From a virus: a stretch of 50,042 bases of DNA. Where the stretch lies: IMG/VR virus record IMGVR_UViG_3300025133_000164, positions 1 to 50,042 of that record. One strand, 5' to 3'. Numbering within the stretch: position 1 is the first letter of the stretch; each line of letters begins with the position of its first letter. The notes below the pieces were generated by a model that saw only the letters and a list, made by a program, of their open reading frames with translations, was not told the origin of the DNA and searched no databases. Shown piece by piece: positions 24,933 through 47,577 of the stretch. The translations under genes and the position numbers were made by a program.

Positions 24933-25445
24933 ATGGACAACAACAAGTCCAAGAGCAAGTCCAAGAGCAAGTCCAACGGTTCGAAGAACATCGTGACCCG
25001 TGTCCAGTTCAGCGAACACAAGGTGGTCTTCCTGCCCTGCTGGTCGCCCGTCAAGGGGTCGGCCACGGACGAGGATGGCAACAAGTGCCTGCCGGCGTTC
25101 AAGCCGACCGGCTTCGTCGTGGCCCTGGAAGGGCCCGACGGAACGCTGACCATCGACCGCAACTGCGGAAACGGCCCCCGCCACGAGGATGCGCAGGACA
25201 AGAGCCTGTTCCCCTCCGGCCCGCGCTTCTGGTCCGCCGTCGCTCCCGGCTTCGCGTCGGGCACCGCGAAGGTGTCGTGGTTCGACCGCCAGCGCGACGC
25301 GGCACAGGATGCGGCGGAGCGCATCTGGCCGGACCTCTTGAACGTCGCACCGGAGGACGTCTCCATCGCCGACCGTGAGGCGGAAGCGGCCCGACTGGAG
25401 GCCGAATTCCGCGCTGAACTGCGCAAGTCGCTGGGGCTGGACTGA
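24933..25445 (+). CDS. hypothetical protein with Ser-Lys repeat N-terminus
   Basis: 170 residues from ATG 24933, chosen over upstream in-frame codons because it follows AGAGAGAAC and the leader hairpins. Residues 5-14 are five Lys-Ser dipeptides, making the N-terminus strongly basic. The rest is a mixed alpha/beta domain with three Cys and an Ala/Glu-rich C-terminal helix. As first gene after the sigma-54-type promoter it may be strongly made. The basic tail could bind nucleic acid. No family recognised. Confidence 0.6.
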   Translation: MDNNKSKSKSKSKSNGSKNIVTRVQFSEHKVVFLPCWSPVKGSATDEDGNKCLPAFKPTGFVVALEGPDGTLTIDRNCGNGPRHEDAQDKSLFPSGPRFWSAVAPGFASGTAKVSWFDRQRDAAQDAAERIWPDLLNVAPEDVSIADREAEAARLEAEFRAELRKSLGLD

Positions 25446-25491
25446 GAGAGGAGAGAGGGGAGAGCAGCACACCACGTAGGGAACCCCGAAC

Positions 25492-25543
25492 GGCTCCACC
25501 CGGAAACGGGTGGGGCCAGTTTCGGTCCAGGCTCGACAGCCTG
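25492..25543 (+). promoter_or_regulatory. two intergenic hairpins, first with GAAA tetraloop
   Basis: GGCTCCACCCG (25492-25502) pairs with CGGGTGGGGCC (25507-25517) around a GAAA loop (one G-T pair). CAGGCT (25528-25533) pairs with AGCCTG (25538-25543) around CGAC. GNRA-capped stems are very stable in RNA. They lie in the 170-base gap between two small genes. There is no T-tract, so an intrinsic terminator is less likely than an mRNA-processing or stabilising site. Confidence 0.5.
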
Positions 25544-25615
25544 TAGCTAAGAATCCAGGGCGTGCTTCCTGGGTTCCTACCTGCCTACTGTCAGCGGCAG
25601 CGAAAGGAAGACACA

Positions 25616-25834
25616 ATGCGAACGGCAACCCTCGCGAACCGGACGCGCGACCTGTACGCAGGTGCAGCTATCTGCCTGTACCGGCGCCAGTCCAGCATCG
25701 CCAACAGCATCGGCTCGACGGCGGACAAGATGCACCGCCAGCTGGAAGGGGTGAAGCTGGACAGCTGGGTGCGCGACGACCTGGAGAAGGAACGTCGGAA
25801 GTGGCAGGAAGCCCTCGCTGAGCACCGCTCGTAG
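25616..25834 (+). CDS. small hypothetical helical protein
   Basis: 72 residues from ATG 25616 (GAAAGGAAG upstream). Helical and charged, with a basic N-terminal half and an amphipathic C-terminal helix. Stands alone between two hairpin-bearing gaps. No family recognised. Confidence 0.5.
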   Translation: MRTATLANRTRDLYAGAAICLYRRQSSIANSIGSTADKMHRQLEGVKLDSWVRDDLEKERRKWQEALAEHRS

Positions 25835-25845
25835 TCAGACGGGAG

Positions 25846-25876
25846 GGGAGACGCTGGGTTCTACCTGGCTTCTCCC
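25846..25876 (+). promoter_or_regulatory. intergenic hairpin
   Basis: GGGAGA (25846-25851) pairs with TCTCCC (25871-25876). Inner pairing GCTGGGT with ACCTGGC and outer pairing with TTCT extend it. It is followed by CGCCTGTCTACTGACAGG, a tail whose relatives follow the other hairpins of this tract. Confidence 0.45.
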
Positions 25877-25936
25877 TTCTCGCCTGTCTACTGACAGGGG
25901 CCAGCCACGGTGGCTGGTCTACCCTTGGAGCTACCC

Positions 25937-26059
25937 ATGCTTCCCACGATCTACCTGCTCGCCATGCTGGTGAGTGAACAGGCCGAAGAAGACAGCGCCA
26001 CCCACTACGTGGTGACGGACAACGACACGCAGGACCAGACGCCCCCGGCGGACTCCTGA
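25937..26059 (+). CDS. 40-residue peptide, hydrophobic start
   Basis: ATG 25937 (TTGGAG upstream) to TGA 26059. A short hydrophobic start (MLPTIYLLAMLV) precedes a polar acidic tail. It overlaps the next ATG by one base. The hydrophobic part is rather short for a membrane span, so the peptide may be peripheral or exported. Function unknown. Confidence 0.45.
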   Translation: MLPTIYLLAMLVSEQAEEDSATHYVVTDNDTQDQTPPADS

Positions 26060-26397
26060 TGCCCCGTCCCTGGCATCTGGCCGAACAGGCCGTCATCGCC
26101 CGTAGGGAGGGGCGAGTCTCCGACGCTCTCTTCCTGTTCCGTGCTGCTGCTGAGCAGTCCAGGCGAGAGAGCGAGAGCGGGCGGGCGACCGACCCCTCCG
26201 GTCTGGCCGCTGTCCAGTACGACAGCGCAGCGGAGGCACTGCTCTCCAAGCTGCCCGATGGTGTGACCGAAGCCTCCCTGTCGGGTCACAGCTACGCTCC
26301 CTCCCTGGTGCACGCCGGAGAAGAGGTGTGCAAGCGCTGTCAGGTCGTCATCGCTGTCGGTGACAGCCAGGCCGGTGTGTGTGGGGGTGTCCGATGA
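26059..26397 (+). CDS. hypothetical protein with C-terminal Cys motif
   Basis: 112 residues from ATG 26059 (TGATG overlap). The N-terminal 60 residues form helices resembling a TPR-like pair (LAEQAVIARREGRVSDALFLFRAAAEQ). The end has CKRC and a third Cys near the C-terminus, possibly a half zinc knuckle. No family recognised. Confidence 0.5.
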   Translation: MPRPWHLAEQAVIARREGRVSDALFLFRAAAEQSRRESESGRATDPSGLAAVQYDSAAEALLSKLPDGVTEASLSGHSYAPSLVHAGEEVCKRCQVVIAVGDSQAGVCGGVR

Positions 26398-26570
26398 CCG
26401 CCTTCGCTTCCGTGGACAAGCTGATGCTGCTCGTCATCCTGTGGTCGTCCTTCGGTGTCTGCCTGGGCATGGTCGGGGCCAACGTGGAGCGTCTCTTCAA
26501 GAGCAGCGCCGACAGTGAGGGCGAGTCGACCTACTTCCTGCTCGACAGGGGGAGTGATGGACGGGAGTGA
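26394..26570 (+). CDS. 58-residue single-span membrane protein
   Basis: ATG 26394 overlaps the previous stop (ATGA). Residues 9-27 (KLMLLVILWSSFGVCLGMVG) are a clear membrane segment; the C-terminal half is polar. It lies in a run of consecutive small genes of which several encode hydrophobic peptides. Could act on the host membrane; not recognised. Confidence 0.5.
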   Translation: MTAFASVDKLMLLVILWSSFGVCLGMVGANVERLFKSSADSEGESTYFLLDRGSDGRE

Positions 26571-26733
26571 CCAGCTGGTCCTGGCGCTGGCACTGGTAGT
26601 GGTGCTCCTCTTCGGGTGGGCATGGTCGACCCAAGCTGAGTGCGTCCAGGCTTGCCTCCCCTACCGGGGAGAGGCGCACACCTTCGGGTGCTTCTGCGAC
26701 ACGACCAAGCGCCAGTCTCAAGGGCTGGACTGA
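26557..26733 (+). CDS. 58-residue exported or membrane Cys-rich protein
   Basis: ATG 26557 lies within the end of the previous gene, after AGGGGGAG. Residues 6-24 are a membrane segment or uncleaved signal (LVLALALVVVLLFGWAW), followed by a short domain with four Cys (ECVQAC, then CFC). In the periplasm these could form two disulphides. A small secreted effector, superinfection-exclusion or lysis-control peptide is possible, but nothing proves it. Confidence 0.5.
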   Translation: MDGSDQLVLALALVVVLLFGWAWSTQAECVQACLPYRGEAHTFGCFCDTTKRQSQGLD

Positions 26734-26742
26734 GACGGGAGA

Positions 26743-26774
26743 GCAGGGGGCTACGCTACGGCGTGGCTCCCTGC
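26743..26774 (+). promoter_or_regulatory. 14-bp hairpin with TACG tetraloop
   Basis: GCAGGGGGCTACGC (26743-26756) pairs fully with GCGTGGCTCCCTGC (26761-26774), counting two G-T pairs, around TACG. UNCG loops are exceptionally stable in RNA. It is followed by CTTCTCGCCTCTACTACTGG and the ribosome site of the next gene. It lacks a proper T-run. Confidence 0.6.
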
Positions 26775-26806
26775 CTTCTCGCCTCTACTACTGGAAGGGA
26801 GAGAGC

Positions 26807-27103
26807 ATGAAGAACATCGAAGTCGTGCGCGCCTGGCTGGCTGGTCAGGCTGCTGTCAACGGCGGAGCAACCCTGCGTACGGACGGGCGCTCCCTGTGGA
26901 GCTACGATCTGCTCATTGGGGACAGCGCCGTCGGCGAGAGCCGACACTTCTGCCTGGACTACAGGGGAGAGGTGTCCCACACCACGTCGTGTCACATCTG
27001 GCTGTGTGTGCGGCTGAGCGTCCCGCTCATCAAGCCGCCCCGGTTCCTGGTGGAGCAAGCGAAGAGCCAGCTGTCAACGGACTGGCCCATGGAGGTGAAG
27101 TGA
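26807..27103 (+). CDS. hypothetical protein
   Basis: 98 residues from ATG 26807 with AAGGGAGAGAG upstream. An alpha/beta composition with central strands (SLWSYDLLIG, HFCLDYRG) and three Cys. Not recognised. Overlaps the next gene by one base. Confidence 0.5.
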   Translation: MKNIEVVRAWLAGQAAVNGGATLRTDGRSLWSYDLLIGDSAVGESRHFCLDYRGEVSHTTSCHIWLCVRLSVPLIKPPRFLVEQAKSQLSTDWPMEVK

Positions 27104-27501
27104 TGGCAGCCTACAGCAGCTGGGCCTACGAGGTGCAGGAGCCCAACCAGAACGTCGAGGTGAACGTCGACGTCGACGGCGAAGCTGAGATGGAGGTGGA
27201 CGGTGGTGACCTGGGCACACACAACGTGTGTGGTTCCGTCAGCCTCGTCGACGAGGACGCGAGCTACGTCAACAGCTGCACCGTGGAGTTCACCGCTGAG
27301 GAGGTGGCTCTCTGCCTGGGGTGGGAGGATGCAGTGGAACTGGCTGGTGAACTGCTCGTGGCTGCCATGCTGGAGAACGGGGTGAAGACCTACGCTGAGA
27401 TGCTGGAGCTTCTGGGGTCGGCGGCTGCCGGGTGCCTGGGCAACGGCATGGCGGAGGGTGTCGCTCACCTGGACGTGGGTGCGCTGGGTCCGAAGGGCTA
27501 A
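27103..27501 (+). CDS. acidic hypothetical protein
   Basis: 132 residues from ATG 27103 (TGATG). The first half is very acidic with a strand pattern VEVNVDVDGEAEMEVDGG; the second half is helical and Ala/Leu/Gly-rich. Strong negative charge could mean DNA mimicry, a known way to block DNA-binding host proteins, but this is speculation from charge alone. Confidence 0.5.
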   Translation: MAAYSSWAYEVQEPNQNVEVNVDVDGEAEMEVDGGDLGTHNVCGSVSLVDEDASYVNSCTVEFTAEEVALCLGWEDAVELAGELLVAAMLENGVKTYAEMLELLGSAAAGCLGNGMAEGVAHLDVGALGPKG

Positions 27502-27514
27502 GCCTGGGGTGGAC

Positions 27515-27547
27515 GAGAGAGTAGGGCTGGCTTGGCCCTACTCTTTC
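27515..27547 (+). promoter_or_regulatory. 14-bp hairpin upstream of MoxR-like gene
   Basis: GAGAGAGTAGGGC (27515-27527) pairs with GCCCTACTCTTTC (27535-27547), one or two G-T pairs, loop TGGCTTG. The following TTTCGCC gives a very short T-run, so a weak terminator is possible. The tail CGCCTGTCAACAGG matches that after the hairpin at 25846. Confidence 0.55.
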
Positions 27548-27615
27548 GCCTGTCAACAGGAACGTTGAACGGGTACAGCTGGCGCGGTGCTGGCTGTAAG
27601 AAGGGAGAGAGAAAG

Positions 27616-28749
27616 ATGAGCAAGACCCCCGATGTGGTCAACGCATTCGCACTGGCCGTCCAGGCTGGCGTCGCACCCTACGCCGAAGGTGAGCCCGGCA
27701 CTGCCAAGTCGGCGCTGCACGAGGCCATCGCCCGGCAGCTGGGCTTCCACCTGGAGCCCGTGGTGGCGTCGTTGTTGTTCGATTCGTCGGACGTCAACGG
27801 CATCAACTACGTCACGCCGGACGGTGGCCTGGGCCACGTCATGGCCCCGTTCGTACAGTCCTGCATGGACGCCTCGGCGGAAGGGCTGGTGCCCTGGATG
27901 TTCTTCGACGAACTGCCCACCGCTGCGCAGGCGGTGCGCGCTGGCCTGCTGCGTGTCGTGGTGCAGAAGGACGTCAACGGCATGGCTCTGCCGGAGGAGA
28001 TTCGCTTCTCCGCTGCCGGCAACCCGCTGGAGCAGGGCGAGGGAGGCAGCCGCCTCTCCGCTGCGATGGCGAACCGCTTCTGCCACCTGGACTGGAGCCT
28101 GCCGGCGGAGTGGCGTGTCTCCCAGATGATGGCGGGCTACCCCGACCCGCCCGTCACCCTGGTGCCCGAGGGGTGGGAGGAGTGGCTGGAAGAGGCACGC
28201 CTCCTGTCGGGACAGTTCATCCTGTCTCCGGCGGGGAGCGACCACTTCCAGAAGTGCCCCAGGGAGCGCAAGCTCCAGTCCGGAGCGTGGCCGTCGGGTC
28301 GCTCGTGGGAGAACGCGAACCGCTGCGTCGCAGCGTGCGCCTCCACGGGGCTGCTCGGTTCCATCGTGGAGTCCCTCCTGCTGGAGGGCTGCGTCGGGTC
28401 GGCAGCTGCGCAGCAGTTCCTCTCCTGGCGCAGGGAGTTGGCGCTGCCCGACCCCGAAGACGTGCTGCGCAAGCCTCGCGGCTGGGCTGCCGACCGGGGT
28501 GACCGTGTGCTCGTGACCCTCTTCGGTGTGGTGCGCGCGGTGGCGACATCGAAGACGCAGGACCGCTACGACGCAGCGTTCCAGGCGTGCCTGTTCGCGG
28601 AGCAGCAGGGCTTCCTCGACGTCGCAGCCATGGCCGCCGGCAAGCTGTGCGCGCTCCGCTCCCAGAAGGGAGGGAACGTGCTGGTGGCGAAGCCCAAGAT
28701 GCTGACCCCCTTCGTGCCCTTCCTCCGGCAGGCCGGGTTCATCGGATGA
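27616..28749 (+). CDS. MoxR-type AAA+ ATPase
   Basis: 377 residues. ATG 27616 is chosen for GGGAGAGAGAAAG upstream. Walker A is GEPGTAKS (25-32), Walker B is MFFDEL (Asp98, Glu99), the sensor-1 Asn is in AAGNP (136), and an arginine is in MANRFCHLDW (154), the signature of the AAA_5/MoxR clade to which RavA, NorQ, CbbQ and CobS also belong. Such ATPases act as hexamers that remodel a target through a VWA-domain partner. A VWA gene lies one gene downstream, which strongly supports a functional pair. The C-terminal part (after 220) is helical. Confidence 0.8.
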   Translation: MSKTPDVVNAFALAVQAGVAPYAEGEPGTAKSALHEAIARQLGFHLEPVVASLLFDSSDVNGINYVTPDGGLGHVMAPFVQSCMDASAEGLVPWMFFDELPTAAQAVRAGLLRVVVQKDVNGMALPEEIRFSAAGNPLEQGEGGSRLSAAMANRFCHLDWSLPAEWRVSQMMAGYPDPPVTLVPEGWEEWLEEARLLSGQFILSPAGSDHFQKCPRERKLQSGAWPSGRSWENANRCVAACASTGLLGSIVESLLLEGCVGSAAAQQFLSWRRELALPDPEDVLRKPRGWAADRGDRVLVTLFGVVRAVATSKTQDRYDAAFQACLFAEQQGFLDVAAMAAGKLCALRSQKGGNVLVAKPKMLTPFVPFLRQAGFIG

Positions 28750-28817
28750 CGACCGTGGGTGTGACCATCGCCGTGGTGTGTGCCGGCTGCTTGCTGCTGG
28801 CCTGCTTCACGGACTGA
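28746..28817 (+). CDS. 23-residue membrane peptide
   Basis: ATG 28746 overlaps the stop of the MoxR-like gene (ATGA), so it would be translated by coupling. Sequence MTTVGVTIAVVCAGCLLLAC is almost wholly hydrophobic. It may be a membrane peptide that tethers or regulates the ATPase system, or a chance frame. A similar coupled 25-residue peptide follows the other ATPase at 43773. Confidence 0.4.
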   Translation: MTTVGVTIAVVCAGCLLLACFTD

Positions 28818-28826
28818 TGTAGTCGG

Positions 28827-28858
28827 AGAGGGACAGGTCCTTCGGGGTCTGTCCTTCT
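28827..28858 (+). promoter_or_regulatory. 14-bp hairpin with TTCG tetraloop
   Basis: AGAGGGACAGGTCC (28827-28840) pairs with GGGTCTGTCCTTCT (28845-28858) around TTCG, with three G-T pairs. Another UNCG-capped stem at the head of a gene; the tail GGTCTGCAACAGG follows. Confidence 0.6.
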
Positions 28859-28881
28859 GGTCTGCAACAGGAGCAACCCCG

Positions 28882-29676
28882 ATGGGTGACAAGAGAGACT
28901 ACTTCCACCCCCCTGTGATGGGGCAGGTCAAGCACTGGACCATGGGTGTGGGCAAGCGCAAGCTTCGGCGTGCGCTGCGTCAGATGGACAAGCCCGACCA
29001 GCAATGGCGTGTCCGCTGCGAGGCTGGTGCCTGGGAGAAGCGCCTGTCCCACGGAGGTGCCCGAACCGTGAGTGCGTGGGTGACCGCCCTGAAGGAAGAC
29101 GGCACTGTCCAGGGGCAGAACCACACCATCACCCTGTGGCGTTCGGGCAAGCTGACCTCCTGCTGTGGCTTCGCCGGCCCTCGCTGTCGGGAGGTGCTGG
29201 GTGCGTGGCGTGCAACGCTGCACGCTGCCAGTTGGGACCGGAAGAAGGAAGCCGCTGCCCTCCCCAAGAAGATGCGGGAAGCAGCCCTCCTTCTCGGGGC
29301 CACACGCCCCAAGGGGCTGAAGGACCGGAGTGAACCGACCAGGAGTGAGGCTCTTTGGAACCAGCCCTACAACCTGGGAAGGTGGGCGCGGGCCAGGGGG
29401 CTGTTCGGCCGCGGCCCGTTGAGCAAGCGCCTGTTCATCGAGGTGGTACGGCACGGCATGTACCGGATGCCCGTCATGTTCTCCGACCTGTTCACGCGCT
29501 GCGGTGGGACGGTGGTGCGTGCTGACTGGAGTAACGGCGTCTGCCTCGTGGACCCGCTGGGATCTGGAGGGTCTGCGGGCTGGGTGTGGGCAGACATCGT
29601 GCCCGACGGTGAAGGCAGCCACATCATCGTGGTCCGGAAGCTGCCACCGGCAGGTGGTGCGGCGTTGAAGTTCTGA
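28882..29676 (+). CDS. hypothetical protein between MoxR and VWA genes
   Basis: 264 residues. ATG 28882 is preferred (CAGGAG ten bases upstream and directly after the hairpin). The protein is basic, with an N-terminal domain holding SCCGFAGPRC and a C-terminal beta-rich domain (VMFSDLFTRCGGTVVRADWSN). It could be the third component or the substrate of the MoxR-VWA pair. No family recognised. Confidence 0.55.
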   Translation: MGDKRDYFHPPVMGQVKHWTMGVGKRKLRRALRQMDKPDQQWRVRCEAGAWEKRLSHGGARTVSAWVTALKEDGTVQGQNHTITLWRSGKLTSCCGFAGPRCREVLGAWRATLHAASWDRKKEAAALPKKMREAALLLGATRPKGLKDRSEPTRSEALWNQPYNLGRWARARGLFGRGPLSKRLFIEVVRHGMYRMPVMFSDLFTRCGGTVVRADWSNGVCLVDPLGSGGSAGWVWADIVPDGEGSHIIVVRKLPPAGGAALKF

Positions 29677-29685
29677 AGCTGGACA

Positions 29686-29723
29686 AGAGGGAAGCAGGTG
29701 GGGTGACCTGCCTGCTTCCTTCT
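29686..29723 (+). promoter_or_regulatory. 13-bp hairpin upstream of VWA gene
   Basis: AGAGGGAAGCAGG (29686-29698) pairs with CCTGCTTCCTTCT (29711-29723) with one G-T pair. The arms close with the same AGAG...TTCT pair as the hairpin at 28827. The ATG of the VWA gene follows 27 bases later, after GGAAGGAGAGG. Confidence 0.55.
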
Positions 29724-29750
29724 GGCCCAACATCGGGAAGGAGAGGAAGA

Positions 29751-31268
29751 ATGTCCTTGCAGATCGATACCACCCAGCTGCGCCCGGCGAAGCCGTGGCC
29801 CACGGAGATGCAGGTCGCACGCATCCGAGCACAGAAGGTCTACCCGTTCTTGTCGGACTGGCTGTTCAGTGTGTCGCTCATCGTGTCGGAGCAGGTCGCG
29901 CTCCCTCGTGGAGAAGGCAAGCCGCCCCAGCCCACGATGGCGTGCGATGCGTACGGTCGGGTGTACGTGCACCCCAGCCTGCTGACGGGCGACGACGCCT
30001 GGGACCGGGACGTCCTGGGTGGTGTCCTGCTCCACGAGATCGGACACCTCGTCCGTGACCACGCCAAGCGTGGAGCGAAGGCAGTGTGGCAAGGAGTGCG
30101 CGTGCACCCCACCGTCTACAACATCGCCGCCGACGGCGAGATGAACACGGGCCTGGAGCGTGACGGTGCGAAGCTGCCGGATTGGGGCGTGTTCCCCGGA
30201 CGGATGGCACCGGACGGAGGGGAGACTCTCCTCTCCGATGCTGTTCCGGGGCTCCTGGCTGAGCAGTACGTCGACCACATCATGAAGAAGCTCCAGCAGC
30301 AGGTGCAGCAGGGTGGGGCGACGGGTGACTCCGACGATCCCAACGCCGTGCCCGTGCCCATGCCGGGGGGGTCGGGTGGCGGCGCTTCCTGCCCGAAGGG
30401 TGAGGGTGCGAGCGGAGGTGAGTGCGGCTCCGGGGGTGGCGGTGAGAAGCAGCCGTGGGAACTGGACGCGCCGGGGCAGGGCTCATCTGATGGTGAGTCA
30501 GACTCATCTGATAGTGAGCCTGGGGGTTCGTCGGAGCAGGGTCGTCAGTCCCTGCGCGACCAGCTGAAGAGCCAGCAGGACCCGACGGGTGGGATGTCCG
30601 AACAGGAGATGGACACCCTGCGCAGGGTGACGGCGGGCAAGGTCCAGCAGTGGGCGAAGGGTCGCGGCCACGGTGCCGGTAGCTGGTCCATGTGGGCTGA
30701 CTCCGTGCTGGAGGAGCCCCCCGTCTCGCCGGAGGAACTGCTGCGCGACGCGCTGAACCAGGCCAGGGAGTGGGCGTCGGGTCGGGGTGACTTCACCTTC
30801 GGACGCATGCCCCACCGGCGCAGGGTGGTGGGCGGTGGTGGCATCGTGCCCCCCGGTGTCGTGCGCCCCGTGCCCCGTGTCATCCTGATGGTAGACACGT
30901 CCGGTTCCATGGGTGGCGACGGGCCGCAGGTGCTGGGCTGGGTCGATGCCTTCTGCCGTGAGTCGGCGACCCCCGTGGAGATCTTCTGCGTGGACTACGA
31001 CGTGAAGAGCACGGGTATGCAGAACGTGTCGGACGTGAGCGATGTCCAGTGGACGGGCGGCGGTGGCACCGACATGCGGGTGGGGTTCCAGTACCTGATG
31101 AAGACGGGGAACATCCCCGATGTCCTCGTGGTGGTGACCGACGGCTACACCCCGTGGCCCGCACGGGAGCCCGGCTTCCGCACGGTCATCGCCCTGACCC
31201 AGGACAGCGGCTCCCACTACAAGCCCCCCTCGTGGGCGGACGTGGTGGAGTGCAAGGAGAAGGTGTGA
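29751..31268 (+). CDS. DUF2201-like metallopeptidase region plus VWA domain
   Basis: 505 residues from ATG 29751. The N-terminal domain has HEIGH (95-99), a zinc-peptidase motif, and NIAADGEMN (about 124-132), typical of the DUF2201 N-terminal family. A low-complexity Gly/Ser/Asp/Gln linker covers about 185-290. The VWA domain (about 375-500) has a complete MIDAS metal site: DTSGS (Asp382, Ser384, Ser386), Thr440 in GGGGTD, Asp464 in VVTDG. DUF2201-type proteins are usually encoded next to a MoxR ATPase, as here (27616). The pair probably recognises and remodels or cleaves a protein target. Whether the peptidase is active is unknown. Confidence 0.8.
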   Translation: MSLQIDTTQLRPAKPWPTEMQVARIRAQKVYPFLSDWLFSVSLIVSEQVALPRGEGKPPQPTMACDAYGRVYVHPSLLTGDDAWDRDVLGGVLLHEIGHLVRDHAKRGAKAVWQGVRVHPTVYNIAADGEMNTGLERDGAKLPDWGVFPGRMAPDGGETLLSDAVPGLLAEQYVDHIMKKLQQQVQQGGATGDSDDPNAVPVPMPGGSGGGASCPKGEGASGGECGSGGGGEKQPWELDAPGQGSSDGESDSSDSEPGGSSEQGRQSLRDQLKSQQDPTGGMSEQEMDTLRRVTAGKVQQWAKGRGHGAGSWSMWADSVLEEPPVSPEELLRDALNQAREWASGRGDFTFGRMPHRRRVVGGGGIVPPGVVRPVPRVILMVDTSGSMGGDGPQVLGWVDAFCRESATPVEIFCVDYDVKSTGMQNVSDVSDVQWTGGGGTDMRVGFQYLMKTGNIPDVLVVVTDGYTPWPAREPGFRTVIALTQDSGSHYKPPSWADVVECKEKV

Positions 31269-31525
31269 GTACCAAGCCCGAGGTCATCCTGCTGTCCCGC
31301 AACTACAGCTGGGTGGTGGAGTGGAGCTGGCCGGGGCTCCGGTGGGTGTTCTCCGGCGCTTCCTTCCGGGAGCCTACTCTGGAGGAGAAGGTCCGGCTTC
31401 CCTCCCACCCCGGCCGACCTAAGGGTGTGGACAGGACGGCGTGGAGTATCGAAGTCCTGCGCCAGCACGGGTGGGAAGCCGAAGCAACGGAAGCCGCGCT
31501 CCTCCTCCTGAACAACAGCCTGTGA
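31265..31525 (+). CDS. hypothetical protein
   Basis: 86 residues. GTG 31265 overlaps the VWA stop (GTGA) and has AAGGAGAAG before it. Trp-rich N-terminus (WVVEWSWPGLRWVFSG) and a helical end. Translationally coupled to the VWA gene, so it may belong to the same system. Not recognised. Confidence 0.5.
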   Translation: MSTKPEVILLSRNYSWVVEWSWPGLRWVFSGASFREPTLEEKVRLPSHPGRPKGVDRTAWSIEVLRQHGWEAEATEAALLLLNNSL

Positions 31526-31531
31526 CGACTC

Positions 31532-31582
31532 AGCCCTGTCCGTCTGCCACCTCCCTTCCTTTCTGGGTGGACGGGCAGGGCT
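31532..31582 (+). promoter_or_regulatory. long hairpin
   Basis: AGCCCTGTCCGTCT (31532-31545) pairs with GGACGGGCAGGGCT (31569-31582) with two G-T pairs and inner extension. It lies seven bases after a stop codon and 22 before the next gene, the last of the series of hairpins in this tract. Confidence 0.5.
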
Positions 31583-31604
31583 TCGCCGCTACAAGGATGC
31601 ACTG

Positions 31605-31910
31605 ATGCTTCATCGTGGACCCCCCCACTTCTACGTCGTGCTCGACTTCCGGGACGATGACATGCGCTCCAACGCCCACGCCTACGTGTGCTGGGGCCTG
31701 ACCTTCGAAGAGACAGGCGGCTACGGTGGCGGCACCGATGCCTGGATGGTGGACGACGCCAAGCTGGAGTCGGTCCCCAAGCTGGGAGAGGCTGGCTTCT
31801 GGATGGGCGAGGAGCCGGAACGTGAGTGGTGGGATCGGGAGATCCAGCCACTGCTGACGGAAGAGAAGAAGGTGGAGCTGGCCTTGCAGCTGCTGGGGAG
31901 GCTGACGTGA
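31605..31910 (+). CDS. hypothetical protein
   Basis: 101 residues from ATG 31605 with AAGGA upstream; ATG 31597 is in another frame. Acidic, Trp- and Gly-containing, ends in a charged helix. Overlaps the next gene as GTGA. Not recognised. Confidence 0.5.
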   Translation: MLHRGPPHFYVVLDFRDDDMRSNAHAYVCWGLTFEETGGYGGGTDAWMVDDAKLESVPKLGEAGFWMGEEPEREWWDREIQPLLTEEKKVELALQLLGRLT

Positions 31911-32281
31911 GCTTCAAGTACAACCCACAGGACTGCGCCATCGTCGTCCGTCGAGACCTGAAGTGGAGCCCCGCCAACACGTACGCCGTGACCGTCAGCC
32001 GCTGGGCATGGAAGAGGCCGGGGTATAGCAGACCCGGCTGGCTCCTGTGCGGCCCTTCGATCGAGGCCAAGACCATCACCGAAGCCCGCGTGCTCGCGGC
32101 ACGTATGGCTACGACGTACTCCCTCCCGAAGCTGAGGACCATGATCCCTCCCCGGAAGGAGATGGAGATCAGGCAGCGGCTGGGCGGCCCCCTATTCCCC
32201 TCGTGGTTCGAACAGCTGGACTGGGAGCACAAGCTCATCGAGTACCAGCTGATGCAGCTGGTGGAGGGCCTGGATGTCTGA
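31907..32281 (+). CDS. hypothetical protein
   Basis: 124 residues. GTG 31907 overlaps the previous stop. Strands followed by a helix (YAVTVSRWAWK, ITEARVLAARMATTY), then a helical C-terminal third. The strand-helix layout recalls other small proteins of this genome (41663, 41986). Not recognised. Confidence 0.5.
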   Translation: MSFKYNPQDCAIVVRRDLKWSPANTYAVTVSRWAWKRPGYSRPGWLLCGPSIEAKTITEARVLAARMATTYSLPKLRTMIPPRKEMEIRQRLGGPLFPSWFEQLDWEHKLIEYQLMQLVEGLDV

Positions 32282-32314
32282 CAGGTACAAGACTACTTGA
32301 AAGGAGAGAAGAAG

Positions 32315-33178
32315 ATGCAAGACAAGAAGACGCTTCAAGTCACCGGTGCCGTGACCCTCTGGTCGCTGTCCGCCTACACGGCGTACGGCCCCATCGCCCA
32401 AGCCTGGTCCGACCTGGGACTGGAGAGGCTGGTGCCTCGCAGGTCGACGCTGACCGACGCAGTGTCGTGGGCACTGCGCTCGTCCTTCTCGGAGCAGCGC
32501 TTCCTCGTCCGCGCCCTGCCCGGTGGGTGGAGTGTGCAGGAGGAGCAGGTCATCGACGGTGGGCTGGAGTACCGCGAGGTGTGCCGGGTCAAGCTCGATG
32601 CCCGGACCACGGTGGAGACGGACTACTTCACGCTGGGCTCCGGCGCTGACGAGAGCACCATCGAGCGTGTCGTCAAGACGGTGACCTTGGCTACCCGGGC
32701 GCTGGGCTCCGTCCCCCGGAAGCATGTGACGGCTGCGCTCGTGTCGCTGGTCCGCTCGTGCGGCGGCATCCCTCTCCGTGACCGGGGTGGCGTCTACTAC
32801 ATGCCCGAGTGGGGCATGGAGAAGTGGGAGAAGGCAGCAGCTGCCGTCGAGAAGGCAGCCATGACGGGGAGCAACTCCATCTACCTGCTCCGTGTGAAGA
32901 AGGACGCCGACGGTGCGCGTGCCATCATCGCAGCGCTGACCTCCGAGGTGTACTCCGAGATCAGCACCATGCGACAGGAGATCGAGGCCAAGGGACTGAG
33001 CGGCAGCGCGCTCACCCGACGCCAGTCCAAGGCACGGCGCGTGCTCTCCAAGGTGGAGAACTACGAGGAACTGCTGGGCTCGGAGATGGATCTGCTGCGC
33101 GCAGCGTGCGCCGAGGTCGAGCCCGACGCTGCGGCGGAAGCCCTGACCGAACTGGGTTCCCTGTTCGGCGACCTCTGA
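32315..33178 (+). CDS. hypothetical 287-residue protein, possible MoxR/VWA system partner
   Basis: ATG 32315 is chosen for AAGGAGAGAAG directly upstream. N-terminal alpha/beta part with a Tyr/Thr-rich region, middle with several short strands (GGVYYMPEWGMEKW), and a helical C-terminus (RRQSKARRVLSKVENYEELLGSEMDLL). It resembles the DUF6744-type proteins encoded near ATPase genes in some phages; this is from memory of composition and should be treated as tentative. Last larger gene of the accessory tract. Confidence 0.45.
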   Translation: MQDKKTLQVTGAVTLWSLSAYTAYGPIAQAWSDLGLERLVPRRSTLTDAVSWALRSSFSEQRFLVRALPGGWSVQEEQVIDGGLEYREVCRVKLDARTTVETDYFTLGSGADESTIERVVKTVTLATRALGSVPRKHVTAALVSLVRSCGGIPLRDRGGVYYMPEWGMEKWEKAAAAVEKAAMTGSNSIYLLRVKKDADGARAIIAALTSEVYSEISTMRQEIEAKGLSGSALTRRQSKARRVLSKVENYEELLGSEMDLLRAACAEVEPDAAAEALTELGSLFGDL

Positions 33179-37766: not shown

Positions 37767-38334
37767 GCGGCCCATCCTTCGCGGAGACATGCCCCAGCGC
37801 CGAGCCGCAACCCGTGAGCTGGTGAGCAGCTGGGAGCGTAGTTTCTGGTGGCAGGCCCCTCTCCGGATCGTGCTCACCACACCGGAGAAGATCTCCGAAA
37901 GCGCGCTCATGCAGCTGGCCAACGAAGGCCAACCCGCCGACGTCAACGACGACTGCCTGTGTGGTGGCCGGCTCTACGAGGTTTGGGAGACCCTCCCCGA
38001 GGAGGGAGTTCTCTGCCCGTGGGAGTTCTGCACCACCTGCAACACCCACCACTACTACTTCGGAACTGGAGACCAAGTTGCCTCTCTTCTCGTGGCAGAA
38101 GACGATCCCGAACCACTGGCTGGAGGTCCCGGGAGTCTACAAGAACAAGCGCAACGACGGTGGGCGAGTCCCGCACAACGCGCATGGGATCTTGGGGCTG
38201 CCACCTGTGGTCCCAGCCAGTGGTGGCCTGAGGACGTTCGACAAGCTCGTTACATCCGCCTGCTTCCCCTCGTGGATGAAAAGCCTCCCGACGGAGTACC
38301 AACGCCGAACTACGGCTGGCGCACTGAGTCGTGA
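37696..38334 (+). CDS. hypothetical protein with Cys-rich motif, overlapping helicase gene
   Basis: 212 residues from ATG 37696 (GAGGGGAG upstream), starting inside the end of the primase gene. Residues 85-120 carry CLCGG and LCPWEFCTTC, a likely zinc-binding site. After about residue 127 the frame overlaps the SNF2 helicase frame for 257 bases and loses the G/C third-position bias, so the C-terminal 85 residues may not be a conserved part. Either a true long overlap, or a frameshift that joins the zinc domain to the helicase. Confidence 0.5.
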   Translation: MSTEDYLNVGGTTARAKWLAYLDRRPILRGDMPQRRAATRELVSSWERSFWWQAPLRIVLTTPEKISESALMQLANEGQPADVNDDCLCGGRLYEVWETLPEEGVLCPWEFCTTCNTHHYYFGTGDQVASLLVAEDDPEPLAGGPGSLQEQAQRRWASPAQRAWDLGAATCGPSQWWPEDVRQARYIRLLPLVDEKPPDGVPTPNYGWRTES

Positions 38335-39679
38335 AGGCTTCCACGCCTGGGCTCCTCCGGGTGCAGGCAAGACCCTGATGGGCTTGATCTGGCTCGCAGC
38401 TGCGAGGCAGGCTCCGAAGCTGGTCATCACCCGAGCGCATGCCCGGTGGAACTGGAAGGAGGAGGTGCGCAAGTACACCCGCTTCCGGCCCGTCATGCTC
38501 ACGGGGAAGACACCGCCCCCCGACTTCAAGGTCGACCCCCGGTGCATCTACATCACCAGCTTCTCGACGATCATCGACTGGCGCGAGACTCTGCTTCAGA
38601 GCTTCAAGGGCGGCTGGCTCTGCATCGATGAGATCCACTGGTGCAAGAACCGGAAGCGGGTCAAGCCCGTCGTCCAGCCCGATGGCTCCACCAAGTGGCA
38701 GCCCCTGGGCAACCAGGCAGCAGCGATGCACCAGCTGTGCGGCGTCACGGCCCGAAGGTTCGGCCTGACGGCGACGCCCGTACCGAACAGGCTCTCCGAC
38801 CTGTGGGCGCAGCTGGACCTCGCAGAGCCTTGGCAGTGGGGCAACTTCCACGGCTTCGGCGTCCGCTACTGCGGTGCGTGGCAGGACACCTACGGCTGGA
38901 AGTACGACGGGATCAGCAACAAGCGCGAGTTGAAGCAACGGCTGAACCACTGCCGCCGAGTCACTCCGCAGTCCGACCTCGCCCGTATGCTCCCCCCCTT
39001 CCGCCGGCAGCTGATCCGCTTGCCGCACTCCGAGCAGGACAACCCCGCCCGGATGAAGGAGTACATGAAGAAGATGCTCCGAGGCGGAAGTGCCTGGGAG
39101 GGGCTGCTTGCCGAGGCTGCTACCCGGAAGCGTACCTACGTCACCCGCAAGGTGGTGGAGGAAGCCAAGGCAGGGATGAAGATCGTAGTCTTCACCGGAC
39201 GACGGAAGGACTGCGAGTCCCTGGCCAAGGCCATCCGGAGGAAGCTGCCGGACCAGATCCCTATGTGGTGGGCGCACGGTGGCACCAGCGGCGAGGAGCG
39301 GCACCGCATCCGGGACGAGTACATGGCCCACCAGGGAGCCTGTGTCCTCGTCGGCACCGGCAACGCCTGGGGTGAGAGCATCAACCTCCAGGACACCGAC
39401 CTCGCCCTGATGGTCATGCTGCCCTGGGAGCCCGAGAAGCTCCGGCAGTGGGAGGGTCGCTTCCCCCGCCTGGGTCAACAGCGTCCGGTCGTGGTCAGCT
39501 ACATCATCTGCGAGGGCACCGCCGACGAGCGGATGTCCGAGACCATGCTGGAGAAGCTCCCCATCGTCGGGCTCGTTGCCGACGACGAGGAAGCCCAGAA
39601 GCTGGAGGAGACTCTGGCCGACACCAAGGAGGGGGACTCGCTGCTTCAGCAGCTGATCTCCAGGGGGCAACGGAAGTGA
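38078..39679 (+). CDS. SNF2/DEAD-like helicase
   Basis: 533 residues if started at TTG 38078, preceded by CTGGAG at good distance; third-position G/C bias begins at about this point. ATG 37961 lies in the same frame upstream without such bias, and ATG 38276 is a later alternative. Motif I is PPGAGKT (Lys98), motif II is IDEIH (Asp184, Glu185), motif III is LTATP, and motif VI is EGRFPRLGQ near residue 475, the order seen in superfamily 2 SNF2-type enzymes. Acts on DNA in replication, recombination or packaging start. Confidence 0.75.
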   Translation: MPLFSWQKTIPNHWLEVPGVYKNKRNDGGRVPHNAHGILGLPPVVPASGGLRTFDKLVTSACFPSWMKSLPTEYQRRTTAGALSREGFHAWAPPGAGKTLMGLIWLAAARQAPKLVITRAHARWNWKEEVRKYTRFRPVMLTGKTPPPDFKVDPRCIYITSFSTIIDWRETLLQSFKGGWLCIDEIHWCKNRKRVKPVVQPDGSTKWQPLGNQAAAMHQLCGVTARRFGLTATPVPNRLSDLWAQLDLAEPWQWGNFHGFGVRYCGAWQDTYGWKYDGISNKRELKQRLNHCRRVTPQSDLARMLPPFRRQLIRLPHSEQDNPARMKEYMKKMLRGGSAWEGLLAEAATRKRTYVTRKVVEEAKAGMKIVVFTGRRKDCESLAKAIRRKLPDQIPMWWAHGGTSGEERHRIRDEYMAHQGACVLVGTGNAWGESINLQDTDLALMVMLPWEPEKLRQWEGRFPRLGQQRPVVVSYIICEGTADERMSETMLEKLPIVGLVADDEEAQKLEETLADTKEGDSLLQQLISRGQRK

Positions 39680-44600: not shown

Positions 44601-44906
44601 ATGAACGAGGAAGTCGAAGCTGTGTTCACCCAACTGGCGCTGATGCAGGCTGGTGGGGAGCGGCTCGTGCTCAACGAAGAAGACTTCGCCACGTACACCA
44701 AGTACCTGGAGAGCCAGTGCCGGGTGTCGAGCGCGACGACGATCGCGCTTGGTTGTGACAGCAGCGCTGTTGTGTCACCTACATCCGTGATGCAAGCCAA
44801 GATCAGCGCTTGGTACCAGAGGCCGACCACCTCCTTCCGGGGCGAGCGAGTCTACTCCCGTTCCGAACTCACCATGTGGACGCAGGCGTATGCAACCAGG
44901 AAGTGA
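44601..44906 (+). CDS. hypothetical protein upstream of DNA polymerase
   Basis: 101 residues from ATG 44601 (GAGGTGAC upstream). A helical N-terminus and a Ser/Thr/Val-rich middle. It overlaps the polymerase gene by 17 bases. Function unknown. Confidence 0.5.
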   Translation: MNEEVEAVFTQLALMQAGGERLVLNEEDFATYTKYLESQCRVSSATTIALGCDSSAVVSPTSVMQAKISAWYQRPTTSFRGERVYSRSELTMWTQAYATRK

Positions 44907-47577
44907 CTGCCAAGACTGTGCCTTGGGCCAGTACCACAAGCGGAAGGAGACCTTCTGCCCGGTGTTGGGGGAGGCGCACGCCAACGACAAGTACCTGATC
45001 ATCGGCCTCTTTCCTGGCTCACACGAAGTACAGGAAGGCAGGCCCTTCGTCGGTCCTTCGGGGATCGAACTGATGCAGGCGCTGGAGGCTACCGGCATTT
45101 CTCGTGACGAGTGCCACATCGAGCACGTGATCTCGTGCCAGCCCCCCGAGAACAACCTGGAGAAGTTCAGGTACCAGCTGAAGAAGAAGACCAAGGCCAG
45201 GAAGAAGAAGGATCCGGGGTGGGTAGCCCCACTGGACCCTCACCGCGCGTGCCAAGGGCACATCCACCAGCTGGACTACTCCAAGTACAAGGGCATCATC
45301 TGCCTGGGCAAGGAAGCGATGCAGCTCTTCCGGAAGCAGTCCTCCATCATGACGATGCGTGGGGCGTGCGAGGAAGTGCAGCAGGGATCGGGCGTCAGGG
45401 GCACCATCCGGCCCGTCAAGGTCGGGTACACCCTCCACCCTGCCTTCGTGTCTCGCTCACCGGAGTGGCGTGACGTCTTCCAGTCCGACATCGCCAAGGC
45501 GTTCCGATACTTCAGGGGAGACCTCCGCTGGCAGTGGCCGGACGTCCAGATTGCGGTCCAGGACCCGAAGCGCTGGCGCGATACGCCGCACGGACCCTAC
45601 GGAGCGGCCCACGTCAAGTTCACAGACATCAGCGGCGACCTGGGTCCCCTCGTAGTCGAGGCTTTGATCCAAGAACTCGTCGATGACGGCGAGCCGGTGG
45701 TCTACGACCTTGAAACCGACTCCAAGTACCCGATGGTCGCCAACATCCGGTGTGTCGGCTTCGGCAACCGCAAGCGGGCTGTCGTCTTCCCGATCAACGA
45801 CCTCCGGAACCACCCCATCTGCCCCGACTGGCTCGGACCTCGCGTCGGCAAGCTGCTTTCGGACCCCCCCTTCAAGCTCATCGGGCACAACGCCGGGCAG
45901 TACGACCGGGCAGTGATGGAAGCGCACGGTGTGACGCCCAGGTTGGACGGCGACACCATCCTCATGCACCTGCTCGCCGACAACGAGCAGAGCCACAGCC
46001 TGGGCTTCTTGGGCAGCTACTACACCGACAACATCGAGGCGTGGAAGGCGGATCACACCGCTACGGAGGCCAAGGACAACGTCGAGCTTTGGGTCTACAA
46101 CGCCAAGGACTGCGTAGTCAACGCCAGGATCATTCCACCGGTCATCAAGCAGGTTCGCCGCCGCAAGCAGGGCCACCTCCTGAAGCGGGAGCACATGCTC
46201 CAGGACGCGGGTGCTGGAATGACGAGGCTGGGCCTGGCTCTCGACGCCGGGAGGCTGGAGAAGATCCGCCAAGCAGTCGACACCAAGCGGCACACCAGCG
46301 CGACGGTCACCAGCCGCATCGCAGCTGGAGTGAACCCCCTGTCCTCACAGCAGCTGTCCAGGCTGCTCTTCGACACCTGGAAGCTGCACCCCGTAGGCTA
46401 CTCGGAGAAGACCGGAGAGCCTTCCACGGACGACGCGACCCTCCTTCGGATGCTGACGACCTACGACCTGACCTCAGACCAGCGTGAGTTCATCACAGCT
46501 GTCAGGTTCCTGCGTCGCTGCTCCAAGGTGAAGGGCACCTACCTCACTCCCTTCTCCAACCTCTCAGGGCTGTACGAAGACAAGCGGCTCCACCCGTCCT
46601 ACAACAGGCTGCCCGCTACAGGGCGCTACTCGTCCTCCAACCCCAACGCCCAGACGGTGCCCATGTACCTGCCCGGGATCGGATGGGTGGATGCGGACGA
46701 GGTGTACCACCCGCTGGCGCTGCGTTCCTGCTTCATCCCCCAGAGAGGGAGCGTCTTCGTCGGCGCAGACATGGACCAGCTGGAGCTTCGGGTCATCGCT
46801 GAAGAGGCGGAAGCCTCCCGGCTACTGCGGTCCTTCGAAGACGGCAGCGACCCGCACAACGACACCATGGAGATGATCTACGGCACCGGGATCTGGAGAA
46901 TGGACGGCGCTCCCGTAGACGCCGACGGCAACACCGACCGCTACGGGAAGGGCGGGGGCATCTTCAAGCAGACCCGAGGCATCACCAAGACGGTGCGCTA
47001 CGCCTGGCAGTACGCCGCGAAGGCCCCCAAGATTCACGAGCAGATCATCGGAGTCGAAGACCCGGTTTCCGGTAAGTTCCCGTATGGCCACTACACGATT
47101 CCAGATGTCCGCTCGATCTGCAAGGGCCTGGACAAGGCTGACCCCGAGATCCCACGCTGGTGGGAGCGCATCGTCGCAGGCTACCGGAGGGACGGCTTCG
47201 TAGCTGACACCCTCTGGGGCCGTCGTCGGGATTTCAAGGGCGACGAGAAGATCAACGAACTCGTCAACCACCCGATCCAGAGCAAAGGCGCGAGCATCGT
47301 CCACGAGGCGATGATCGAGCTTCTCTACGGAGAGCAGCCCTGGTTCACGACGGAGAAGGCAAGCGGCAACGGCAGGCGGGAGACGATTCCCTTCGACTTC
47401 AAGAAGAAGTACGGGCTCGTCAACCAGTGCCACGACTCGCTGGTGTTCGAAGTGCCTGAAGCCGACGCTGAACGCGTAGCAGAACTGATGACGGACGTCA
47501 TGACCCGCAAGGTGAAGGGCGGATCCGTCGTGTACTCGGCTGAGGCCGACATCGGAGAACGCTGGAGCGACGTCTAA
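44890..47577 (+). CDS. uracil-DNA-glycosylase-like domain fused to family A DNA polymerase
   Basis: 895 residues from ATG 44890. The first 200 residues match Fe-S uracil-DNA glycosylases: CQDC (Cys7, Cys10), GLFPGSHE (39-46), GRPFVG, CQPPENN and TLHPAF. In family 4 enzymes the first motif is GE.PG; here Leu40 replaces the Glu, nearer to family 5, so activity is uncertain. A DnaQ-like exonuclease follows (YDLET, Asp273, Glu275; IGHNAGQYD; YNAKDCVVN). The polymerase has motif A ADMDQLELR (Asp627), motif B with Arg696, Lys700, Tyr704, Tyr708, and motif C CHDSLVFE (Asp849, Ser850). Tyr704 sits where T7 polymerase has Tyr526; Ser850 replaces the usual Glu. Chief replicative polymerase. Confidence 0.88.
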   Translation: MQPGSDCQDCALGQYHKRKETFCPVLGEAHANDKYLIIGLFPGSHEVQEGRPFVGPSGIELMQALEATGISRDECHIEHVISCQPPENNLEKFRYQLKKKTKARKKKDPGWVAPLDPHRACQGHIHQLDYSKYKGIICLGKEAMQLFRKQSSIMTMRGACEEVQQGSGVRGTIRPVKVGYTLHPAFVSRSPEWRDVFQSDIAKAFRYFRGDLRWQWPDVQIAVQDPKRWRDTPHGPYGAAHVKFTDISGDLGPLVVEALIQELVDDGEPVVYDLETDSKYPMVANIRCVGFGNRKRAVVFPINDLRNHPICPDWLGPRVGKLLSDPPFKLIGHNAGQYDRAVMEAHGVTPRLDGDTILMHLLADNEQSHSLGFLGSYYTDNIEAWKADHTATEAKDNVELWVYNAKDCVVNARIIPPVIKQVRRRKQGHLLKREHMLQDAGAGMTRLGLALDAGRLEKIRQAVDTKRHTSATVTSRIAAGVNPLSSQQLSRLLFDTWKLHPVGYSEKTGEPSTDDATLLRMLTTYDLTSDQREFITAVRFLRRCSKVKGTYLTPFSNLSGLYEDKRLHPSYNRLPATGRYSSSNPNAQTVPMYLPGIGWVDADEVYHPLALRSCFIPQRGSVFVGADMDQLELRVIAEEAEASRLLRSFEDGSDPHNDTMEMIYGTGIWRMDGAPVDADGNTDRYGKGGGIFKQTRGITKTVRYAWQYAAKAPKIHEQIIGVEDPVSGKFPYGHYTIPDVRSICKGLDKADPEIPRWWERIVAGYRRDGFVADTLWGRRRDFKGDEKINELVNHPIQSKGASIVHEAMIELLYGEQPWFTTEKASGNGRRETIPFDFKKKYGLVNQCHDSLVFEVPEADAERVAELMTDVMTRKVKGGSVVYSAEADIGERWSDV

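What the first reader, a model, noticed from the sequence alone, without database searches (positions are those of the whole stretch)
27616..31525. Phage MoxR ATPase with DUF2201-like peptidase/VWA partner and an unknown third gene
All key residues of the AAA+ ATPase (GEPGTAKS, FFDEL, AAGNP, Arg154) and of the VWA MIDAS (DTSGS, Thr440, Asp464) and the HEIGH motif are intact. In bacteria MoxR-VWA pairs remodel or activate target proteins, and such pairs also occur in predicted conflict systems. Here the pair comes with a 264-residue unknown protein between, a coupled 23-residue membrane peptide and a coupled 86-residue protein. A phage-borne version could counter host defence, mature a virion or host enzyme, or itself exclude other phages.
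Basis: partly seen in the sequence, partly recalled or inferred. Interest (0 to 1): 0.78.

Follow-up and report, generated by a model that had tools for sequence, protein, structure and literature searches.

The report
Phage MoxR ATPase–VWA metallopeptidase module
A phage carries an ATP-driven ring protein and its protease-like adaptor, a pair already known from many phages, and a neighbouring gene of an unknown family (DUF6744) that also sits next to such pairs in three bacterial phyla may be their overlooked third partner.

Summary
In detail: MoxR-type AAA+ ATPase (27616-28749) and a DUF2201 zinc-metallopeptidase/VWA protein (29751-31268), all catalytic motifs intact, with the 23-, 264- and 86-residue ORFs as described. 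The pair itself is not new: it is the N4 gp24/gp25 pair (core in N4-like phages) and was described in jumbo phages in 2021. In 71 of 79 viral loci with the MoxR, the VWA partner lies downstream on the same strand; HExxH and MIDAS residues are invariant in 30 of 30 representatives. Two things are new here. The window's pair falls with Actinomycetota-type cellular pairs, not with N4-like phages (grouping rejected, p-AU 2e-7), so it was acquired separately. And a DUF6744 gene just outside the reported interval (32315-33178) is a better candidate third partner: in 7 of 8 bacterial genomes with a clear DUF6744, from three phyla, a MoxR gene lies within 8 kb, usually in the order MoxR-VWA-DUF6744. 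Best mechanism (inferred): ATP-driven, MIDAS-targeted remodelling or cleavage of a protein complex during phage replication. New variant of a known kind.

The parts
27616..28749 (+). MoxR-type AAA+ ATPase, 377 aa, Walker A of the alanine variant GEPGTAKS
   Evidence: translation; PHROG 1297 E 3e-29; invariant motif columns; MoxR tree
28746..28817 (+). 23-aa hydrophobic ORF overlapping the MoxR stop (ATGA); reality and role uncertain
28882..29676 (+). 264-aa orphan between the pair; not a conserved component
   Evidence: no Pfam, PHROG or PADLOC match, one NCBIfam hit only at E 0.07, far below cut-off; no relatives; single-sequence model unusable, pLDDT 36.9
29751..31268 (+). DUF2201_N zincin-like metallopeptidase domain + Gly/Ser-rich linker + VWA (MIDAS) domain, 505 aa
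   Evidence: Pfam; 30-row alignment; fold match; zincin profile match
31265..31525 (+). 86-aa orphan, start overlaps the VWA stop (GTGA)
31605..31910 (+). 101-aa ORF of unknown family between VWA and DUF6744
31907..32281 (+). 124-aa ORF coupled by GTGA to the previous one; the longer frame from 31826 has no family match
   Evidence: ORF list; start context; families
32315..33178 (+). DUF6744 (PF20529) protein, 287 aa: proposed third partner, outside the reported interval
   Evidence: Pfam E 8.8e-7, 28.6 bits vs cut-off 27; next to MoxR-VWA in other loci
37961..39679 (+). SNF2-type helicase on the same strand; SNF2 genes also follow MoxR-VWA-DUF6744 in two Actinomycetota genomes; link to the module tentative

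Best explanation
A MoxR AAA+ ring and its VWA adaptor, which here also carries a zinc-metallopeptidase domain. The ring (hexamer by analogy with NorQ) hydrolyses ATP; the VWA domain docks on it and uses its metal site (MIDAS) to grip an acidic residue of a target protein; the ATP-driven movement opens or unfolds the target, and the adjacent HExxH domain cuts it, or cuts something in the complex. It acts in the replication (middle) phase of infection, on a host or phage nucleic-acid-handling complex rather than mainly on the virion. DUF6744 is likely the third member, probably a target-recognition or regulatory subunit. Shown here: gene identities, intact motifs, conservation of the pair, separate ancestry from the N4 pair, DUF6744 linkage. 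Inferred: hexamer, docking, proteolysis, timing, target, role of DUF6744.
For: Pair conserved in 71 of 79 viral loci, same strand. HExxH, MIDAS and D128 invariant in 30 of 30, so selection keeps both the peptidase and the target-binding site. The N-terminal profile matches solved zinc peptidases: M48 family 3c37 E 1.8e-5, BepA 0.0012, MJ1213 0.014. VWA fold confirmed, with matches to NorD in the NorQD complex (9qhe, E 0.015) and human MDN1-MIDAS/NLE1 (E 0.0013); the MoxR profile matches Midasin AAA domains (E 2.5e-15). NorQD passages (PMC9976466) give the ring, 'finger' and MIDAS mechanism and propose it as general. Neighbours of phage pairs are mostly RNA polymerase, DNA polymerase, helicase, exonuclease, primase and thymidylate synthase families; N4 gp24/gp25 are middle transcripts (PMC4193335, passages). 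In the window the pair lies on the replication arm, not the minus-strand structural arm.
Against: No target is known; the search for DUF2201 in print gave 4 papers, none of which looks from the listing like a functional study. Terminase families also occur near phage pairs (phrog_38 in 3 and phrog_4758 in 2 of 131 neighbour ORFs; phrog_2 near L008), and in phage RPP1 virion genes lie near gp24/gp25 (PMC4193335). HExxH could serve only zinc binding. The peptidase domain's fold was not tested alone. DUF6744 is separated from the pair by three small genes in the window.
Confidence: 0.45

Rival explanations
1. Virion assembly chaperone-protease: the pair matures or assembles capsid or tail proteins, as proposed for jumbo phages and the archaeal virus ATV.
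For: Proposed for the same architecture in group 2.2 jumbo phages (PMC7824862, passages); ATV p618 MoxR binds VWA protein p892 and virion proteins (PMC4124505, passages); in cyanophage S-TIM54 the pair is one gene away from one annotated virion structural protein.
Against: Most annotated neighbours are replication, transcription or nucleotide-metabolism genes; N4 gp24/gp25 are middle, not late, transcripts (PMC4193335); in the window the pair is on the opposite strand from the structural genes.
Confidence: 0.22
2. Conflict module: the phage carries the core of a MoxR-vWA counter-invader machine and uses it for exclusion of other phages, or as a dominant-negative or counter-defence version of the host's.
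For: Separate acquisition from cellular-type pairs; P-loop GEPGTAKS fits the GXXXTAKS form noted for FtsH and beta-propeller conflict systems (PMC7159879 section 22); DUF6744 with MoxR, VWA and a CHAT protein in G196 and with SNF2 helicases in G506 and G548.
Against: No PADLOC match; no VMAP, FtsH or beta-propeller third component was recognised in the window ORFs scanned; the alanine P-loop is also, by recall, that of the housekeeping ATPase RavA; the function of the DUF6744 loci is unknown.
Confidence: 0.2
3. Pure maturation chaperone without proteolysis, e.g. metal or cofactor loading of a phage or host enzyme, as for NorQD or CbbQO; HExxH only structural.
For: Studied MoxR-VWA pairs act as chaperones (PMC9976466, passages; PMC3893208, abstract start in the listing); a Bacillus phage pair was annotated as a metalloprotein chaperonin (PMC2147016, passages).
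Against: The full zinc-site set, including E96, is invariant in 30 of 30, which a merely structural zinc site would not need.
Confidence: 0.1

Closest known systems
N4 gp24/gp25 pair of Schitoviridae (PHROG 1297 / PHROG 1314)
   Same: Same two-gene order and domain content; core genes of N4-like phages, middle transcripts (PMC4193335, PMC7650795, passages)
   Different: N4 proteins are 21% identical to the window's; separate ancestry, grouping with N4-like rejected; window has the alanine P-loop and DUF6744
MoxR + metallopeptidase-vWA pair of group 2.2 jumbo phages (Iyer et al. 2021, PMC7824862)
   Same: Same architecture: vWA fused to an N-terminal metallopeptidase, paired with MoxR
   Different: Different phage type (podovirus-like, 50 kb contig) and DUF6744; the jumbo-phage sequences named there were not fetched
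Actinomycetota DUF2201 MoxR-VWA operons (e.g. Planotetraspora L091, Actinomadura L088)
   Same: Closest relatives by identity of both proteins: L091, 38% and 36% over aligned columns
   Different: Cellular two-gene operons; no DUF6744 match in the genomes of L088 or L091
MoxR-vWA-centric ternary conflict systems (Kaur et al. 2020, PMC7159879)
   Same: MoxR + vWA + third component; GXXXTAKS P-loop form
   Different: None of the four named third components recognised; no beta-propeller on the VWA protein
NorQD, RavA-ViaA, CbbQO
   Same: MoxR ring with VWA/MIDAS adaptor
   Different: No HExxH peptidase domain reported in the passages read

Membership tests
MoxR AAA+ ATPases | Walker A lysine/serine, Walker B DE, sensor-1 Asn, arginine finger, sensor-2 Arg (motif labels recalled) | tested here: met
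   K31 S32, D98 E99, N136, R154, R229 invariant in A1. Pfam AAA_5, AAA_3 and bpMoxR scores are below their curated cut-offs
MoxR AAA+ ATPases | Placement among MoxR proteins with a VWA partner gene | tested here: met
   tree; partner downstream
DUF2201 metallopeptidase-VWA proteins | Both Pfam domains over cut-off | tested here: met
   61.8 vs 23.2 and 45.5 vs 26.4 bits
DUF2201 metallopeptidase-VWA proteins | HExxH and DxSxS-T-D residues intact | tested here: met
   invariant in 30 of 30
DUF2201 metallopeptidase-VWA proteins | Peptidase activity | not testable with these tools
   needs purified protein
N4-type gp24/gp25 lineage | MoxR groups with the N4-like phage proteins | tested here: not met
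   AU test p 1.78e-7 for window + 8 N4-like rows; group chosen after seeing the tree
Kaur et al. beta-propeller ternary system | VWA protein with C-terminal beta-propeller | tested here: not met
   protein ends at residue 505, VWA domain spans 377-500
Kaur et al. ternary systems | VMAP, iSTAND or FtsH third component | tested here: inconclusive
   none seen among window ORFs scanned with Pfam, but not every ORF was scanned and no dedicated models were used
MoxR-VWA-DUF6744 set (proposed here) | All three genes, same strand, order MoxR, VWA, DUF6744 within 8 kb | tested here: met
   window 27616-33178; same order in G196, G212, G506, G548, G660, G885 and phage L036
MoxR-VWA-DUF6744 set (proposed here) | Physical complex of the three proteins | not testable with these tools
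   needs co-purification

The most novel reading that the evidence does not exclude
MoxR, VWA and DUF6744 form a three-protein ATP-driven machine that has not been recognised as such. It is shared by Planctomycetota, Actinomycetota, Chloroflexota and at least three phages, works with more than one type of MoxR-VWA pair, and in cells is teamed with CHAT protease or SNF2 helicase genes as a conflict system. This phage captured a version, separately from N4-like phages, and uses it in phage-host or phage-phage conflict.
Probability: 0.3. Interest if true: 0.75.

Novelty: new variant of a known kind. Interest (0 to 1): 0.5.

Why it matters
A MoxR-VWA-metallopeptidase pair is core in N4-like phages and occurs in hundreds of other viral contigs, yet no target turned up in the papers searched here. 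Showing that phages acquired it more than once, that its peptidase and target-binding sites are kept, and that a specific unknown family (DUF6744) recurs beside such pairs in three phyla gives concrete, testable partners. It could reveal both what phages remodel or cut during replication and a new component of bacterial ATP-driven conflict systems.

Tried and rejected
(1) The 264-aa gene as the third partner: no relatives by tblastn in phages at E up to 1, only the identical contig in viral contigs, nothing significant among loci. The genes between MoxR and VWA in other phages are of mixed families; one family of about 295 aa recurs in four loci of another clade, and phmmer found no significant link to the 264-aa protein. 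(2) A plain N4 origin: rejected. One origin for all phage rows: also rejected, p-AU 1.24e-6. Both groups were named after the tree was seen, several rows have odd amino-acid make-up, and the VWA tree is a quick one. (3) A known defence system: no PADLOC match for four products. (4) A universal phage neighbour: none; the largest neighbour family is in 8 of 33 representatives. (5) DUF6744, results against: absent from 50,697 phage records with two queries; a profile scan of viral contigs was impossible; single-protein scans found only their own contigs; absent from 13 of 14 cellular genomes with a window-type pair and from 2 of 4 viral records; next to a PF00004 AAA gene without MoxR within 8 kb in G094 and in the below-cut-off G159 and G074; nothing found beside the weak partial hits in G125 and G573. 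In phage L010 it is about 7 kb from the pair on the other strand. (6) No solved structure resembles DUF6744 by sequence (best E 0.89). The peptidase domain is not covered by the fold-match rows: not tested, not absent. (7) Zero papers name DUF6744, and a 2026 BREX paper with MoxR/vWA passages does not name it; the supplementary source data of Kaur et al. 2020, whose main text mentions unnamed linked proteins, were not readable here.
Full report
1. The observation. The record is a 50,042-base virus contig, 61-67% G+C, with no DNA relative in 50,697 phage records at the distant setting for 25001-33000. The ATPase has GEPGTAKS, FFDE, AAGN and R154 in conserved columns. The VWA protein exceeds Pfam's cut-offs for DUF2201_N and DUF2201. 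A second viral contig, IMGVR_UViG_3300006923_000066, is identical over the 14,930 bases compared, so it adds no evolutionary information.

2. What kind of phage. The minus-strand arm (2.9-23.4 kb) gives weak to moderate matches to terminase large subunit, a head-tail adaptor, an internal virion protein and a tail protein. The plus-strand arm gives primase, SNF2-type helicase, exonuclease, a Sak4-like protein and a family-A DNA polymerase. This suggests a podovirus-like phage of a divergent group (inference). The MoxR-VWA module stands near the start of the replication arm.

3. The pair is known and widespread in phages. tblastn of the ATPase finds 310 phage records, all below 60% identity. In phage N4 the same two genes are gp24 (ATPase) and gp25, the latter labelled 'HNH endonuclease' in the record, although it aligns with the window protein and shares its HExxH and MIDAS residues. 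Papers, seen as passages: N4 gp24 and gp25 are among 14 core genes and are middle transcripts (PMC4193335); AAA+ gp24 and gp25 appear in the pan-proteome table (PMC7650795); roseophages have them (PMC2784036), and so does Delftia phage RG-2014, with DUF2201_N (PMC5735904); a two-subunit MoxR in a Bacillus phage was noted in 2007 (PMC2147016); and the exact architecture, vWA fused to an N-terminal metallopeptidase and paired with MoxR, was described in group 2.2 jumbo phages with a proposed role in virion assembly and processing (PMC7824862).

4. Conservation. A profile scan of viral contigs found at least 528 with a relative of the ATPase and kept the best 80; L007 is the identical contig. In the other 79, the DUF2201-VWA gene lies downstream on the same strand in 71; of the 8 without it, 7 have 1,591 bases or fewer left on the contig and one (L028) has 9.7 kb and lacks it. 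With a better profile L030 also shows a partial partner. Gaps run from -4 to 2,147 bases. In 30 representatives at 70% identity, H95, E96, H99, R107, D128, N132, D382, S384, S386, T440 and D464 are invariant. The N-terminal profile resembles solved zinc peptidases (3c37 M48 family 1.8e-5; BepA 0.0012; MJ1213 0.014; projannalysin 0.57). The C-terminal domain is a VWA fold by model.

5. The other genes in the interval. The 264-aa product has no relatives in the phage records, in viral contigs or among the loci; the 86-aa product none in the phage records or the loci; the 23-aa product none among the loci (not searched elsewhere). A structure of the 264-aa protein could not be obtained (pLDDT 36.9). 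In 33 representative loci the genes between MoxR and VWA are absent or of mixed families. They are best seen as lineage-specific cargo.

6. Ancestry. Trees of the VWA protein (100 rows, quick) and of MoxR (55 rows, careful) both place the window within a well-supported group of mostly Actinomycetota cellular pairs, with viral contigs L008, L036 and L075 (and L010 in the VWA tree) in it or at its edge, and away from the N4-like and other phage groups. Holding the window and 8 N4-like rows together is rejected (p-AU 1.78e-7), as is one clade of all 24 phage rows (1.24e-6). Caveats: groups named after seeing the tree, rows with unusual make-up, long branches. In cells the pair is a common operon: of the 80 cellular loci fetched, 66 show a MoxR match in the stretch held.

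7. A better third gene: DUF6744. Window 32315-33178 matches PF20529 just above its cut-off (28.6 vs 27 bits), and by phmmer matches genes next to the pair in phage L036 (MoxR-VWA-DUF6744), in a Pirellulaceae genome (DUF6744-MoxR-VWA) and, about 7 kb away on the other strand, in phage L010. Family searches then gave clear (over cut-off) DUF6744 in 4 of 294 Planctomycetota, 2 of 346 Actinomycetota, 3 of 39 genomes of one Actinomycetota order, two of them already counted, and 1 of 251 Chloroflexota: 8 genomes in all. In 7 of these 8 a MoxR gene lies within 8 kb: G003, G196, G212, G506, G548, G660 and G885; a VWA gene lies between in G196, G212, G506, G548, G660 and G885. G094 instead has a PF00004 AAA gene beside it. 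With the observed number of MoxR-like hits per genome, six or more of eight within 8 kb would arise with probability about 2e-9 if placement were random; the eight include relatives from one order, so they are not fully independent. In G196 a CHAT-domain gene follows after one other gene; in G506 and G548 an SNF2 helicase gene follows; the window also has an SNF2 helicase further down the same strand, but such helicases are common in phages. The P-loop of the window MoxR (GEPGTAKS) has alanine in place of the usual glycine, as in the DUF6744-linked MoxR of L090 (VAKT), L204 (AAKS) and L205 (CAKS), and in viral L008 and L075, whereas nearly all other pairs here, including DUF6744-linked L036 and L010, have GK. 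Kaur et al. 2020 (sections 21-22 read) note a GXXXTAKS form in two of their conflict systems. By recall, E. coli RavA also has an alanine there, so this is suggestive only.

8. How it probably works. NorQD work (PMC9976466, passages) shows a MoxR hexamer with a VWA partner whose finger is assigned to the pore and whose MIDAS is proposed to grip acidic residues of the target. By analogy the window pair would use ATP to distort a target held by the MIDAS, and the HExxH domain, invariant in the phage set, would cut. Neighbours of phage pairs lean to transcription, replication and nucleotide metabolism (of 131 ORFs in 13 loci: RNA polymerase phrog_414 in 6, DNA polymerase phrog_17 in 5, N4-like RNA polymerase phrog_2166 in 5; terminase phrog_38 in 3; primase and polymerase families again in 57 ORFs of 4 loci of the window's group, beside endolysin and terminase). 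I therefore favour a replication-phase target over virion maturation, without excluding the latter.

9. Verdict. The pair is a known phage module, here in a separately acquired version; the reported third gene is not conserved; the DUF6744 association is the new lead. No paper in the library names DUF6744, though it may be described elsewhere under another name. New variant of a known kind.

Noticed in passing
window 44890-47577 (+): Family-A DNA polymerase with an N-terminal uracil-DNA-glycosylase domain (UDG E 1.1e-13, DNA_pol_A 2.6e-43).
   Followed up: no
PHROG 1314; phage N4 NC_008720.1 gp25: DUF2201 metallopeptidase-VWA proteins are labelled 'HNH endonuclease' in PHROGs and in the N4 record; alignment shows HExxH and MIDAS residues instead. 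Probably a spread annotation error.
   Followed up: partly
L193, L194, L195, L196 (Planctomycetota genomes G094, G159, G074): DUF6744-like genes stand beside a conserved AAA+ ATPase gene (PF00004; Ycf46-like by eye, recalled) instead of MoxR, so DUF6744 may be a more general AAA+ partner.
   Followed up: partly
L191 2100-11459 (G196): CHAT-domain gene, an unknown 336-aa frame, DUF6744, VWA and MoxR in a row on one strand, resembling a conflict-system operon.
   Followed up: partly
L205 5193-13656 (G506) and L204 (G548): MoxR-VWA-DUF6744-SNF2 helicase gene order in two Actinomycetota genomes; whether these are prophage-borne was not tested.
   Followed up: partly
window 29751-31268, residues 225-227 of the protein: A CGS motif in the Gly-rich linker between peptidase and VWA domains is invariant in the five-member phage group of the window.
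   Followed up: no
L012, L018, L046, L085 between MoxR and VWA: A conserved gene of about 295 aa in another phage clade; the L012 copy has no PHROG match.
   Followed up: no
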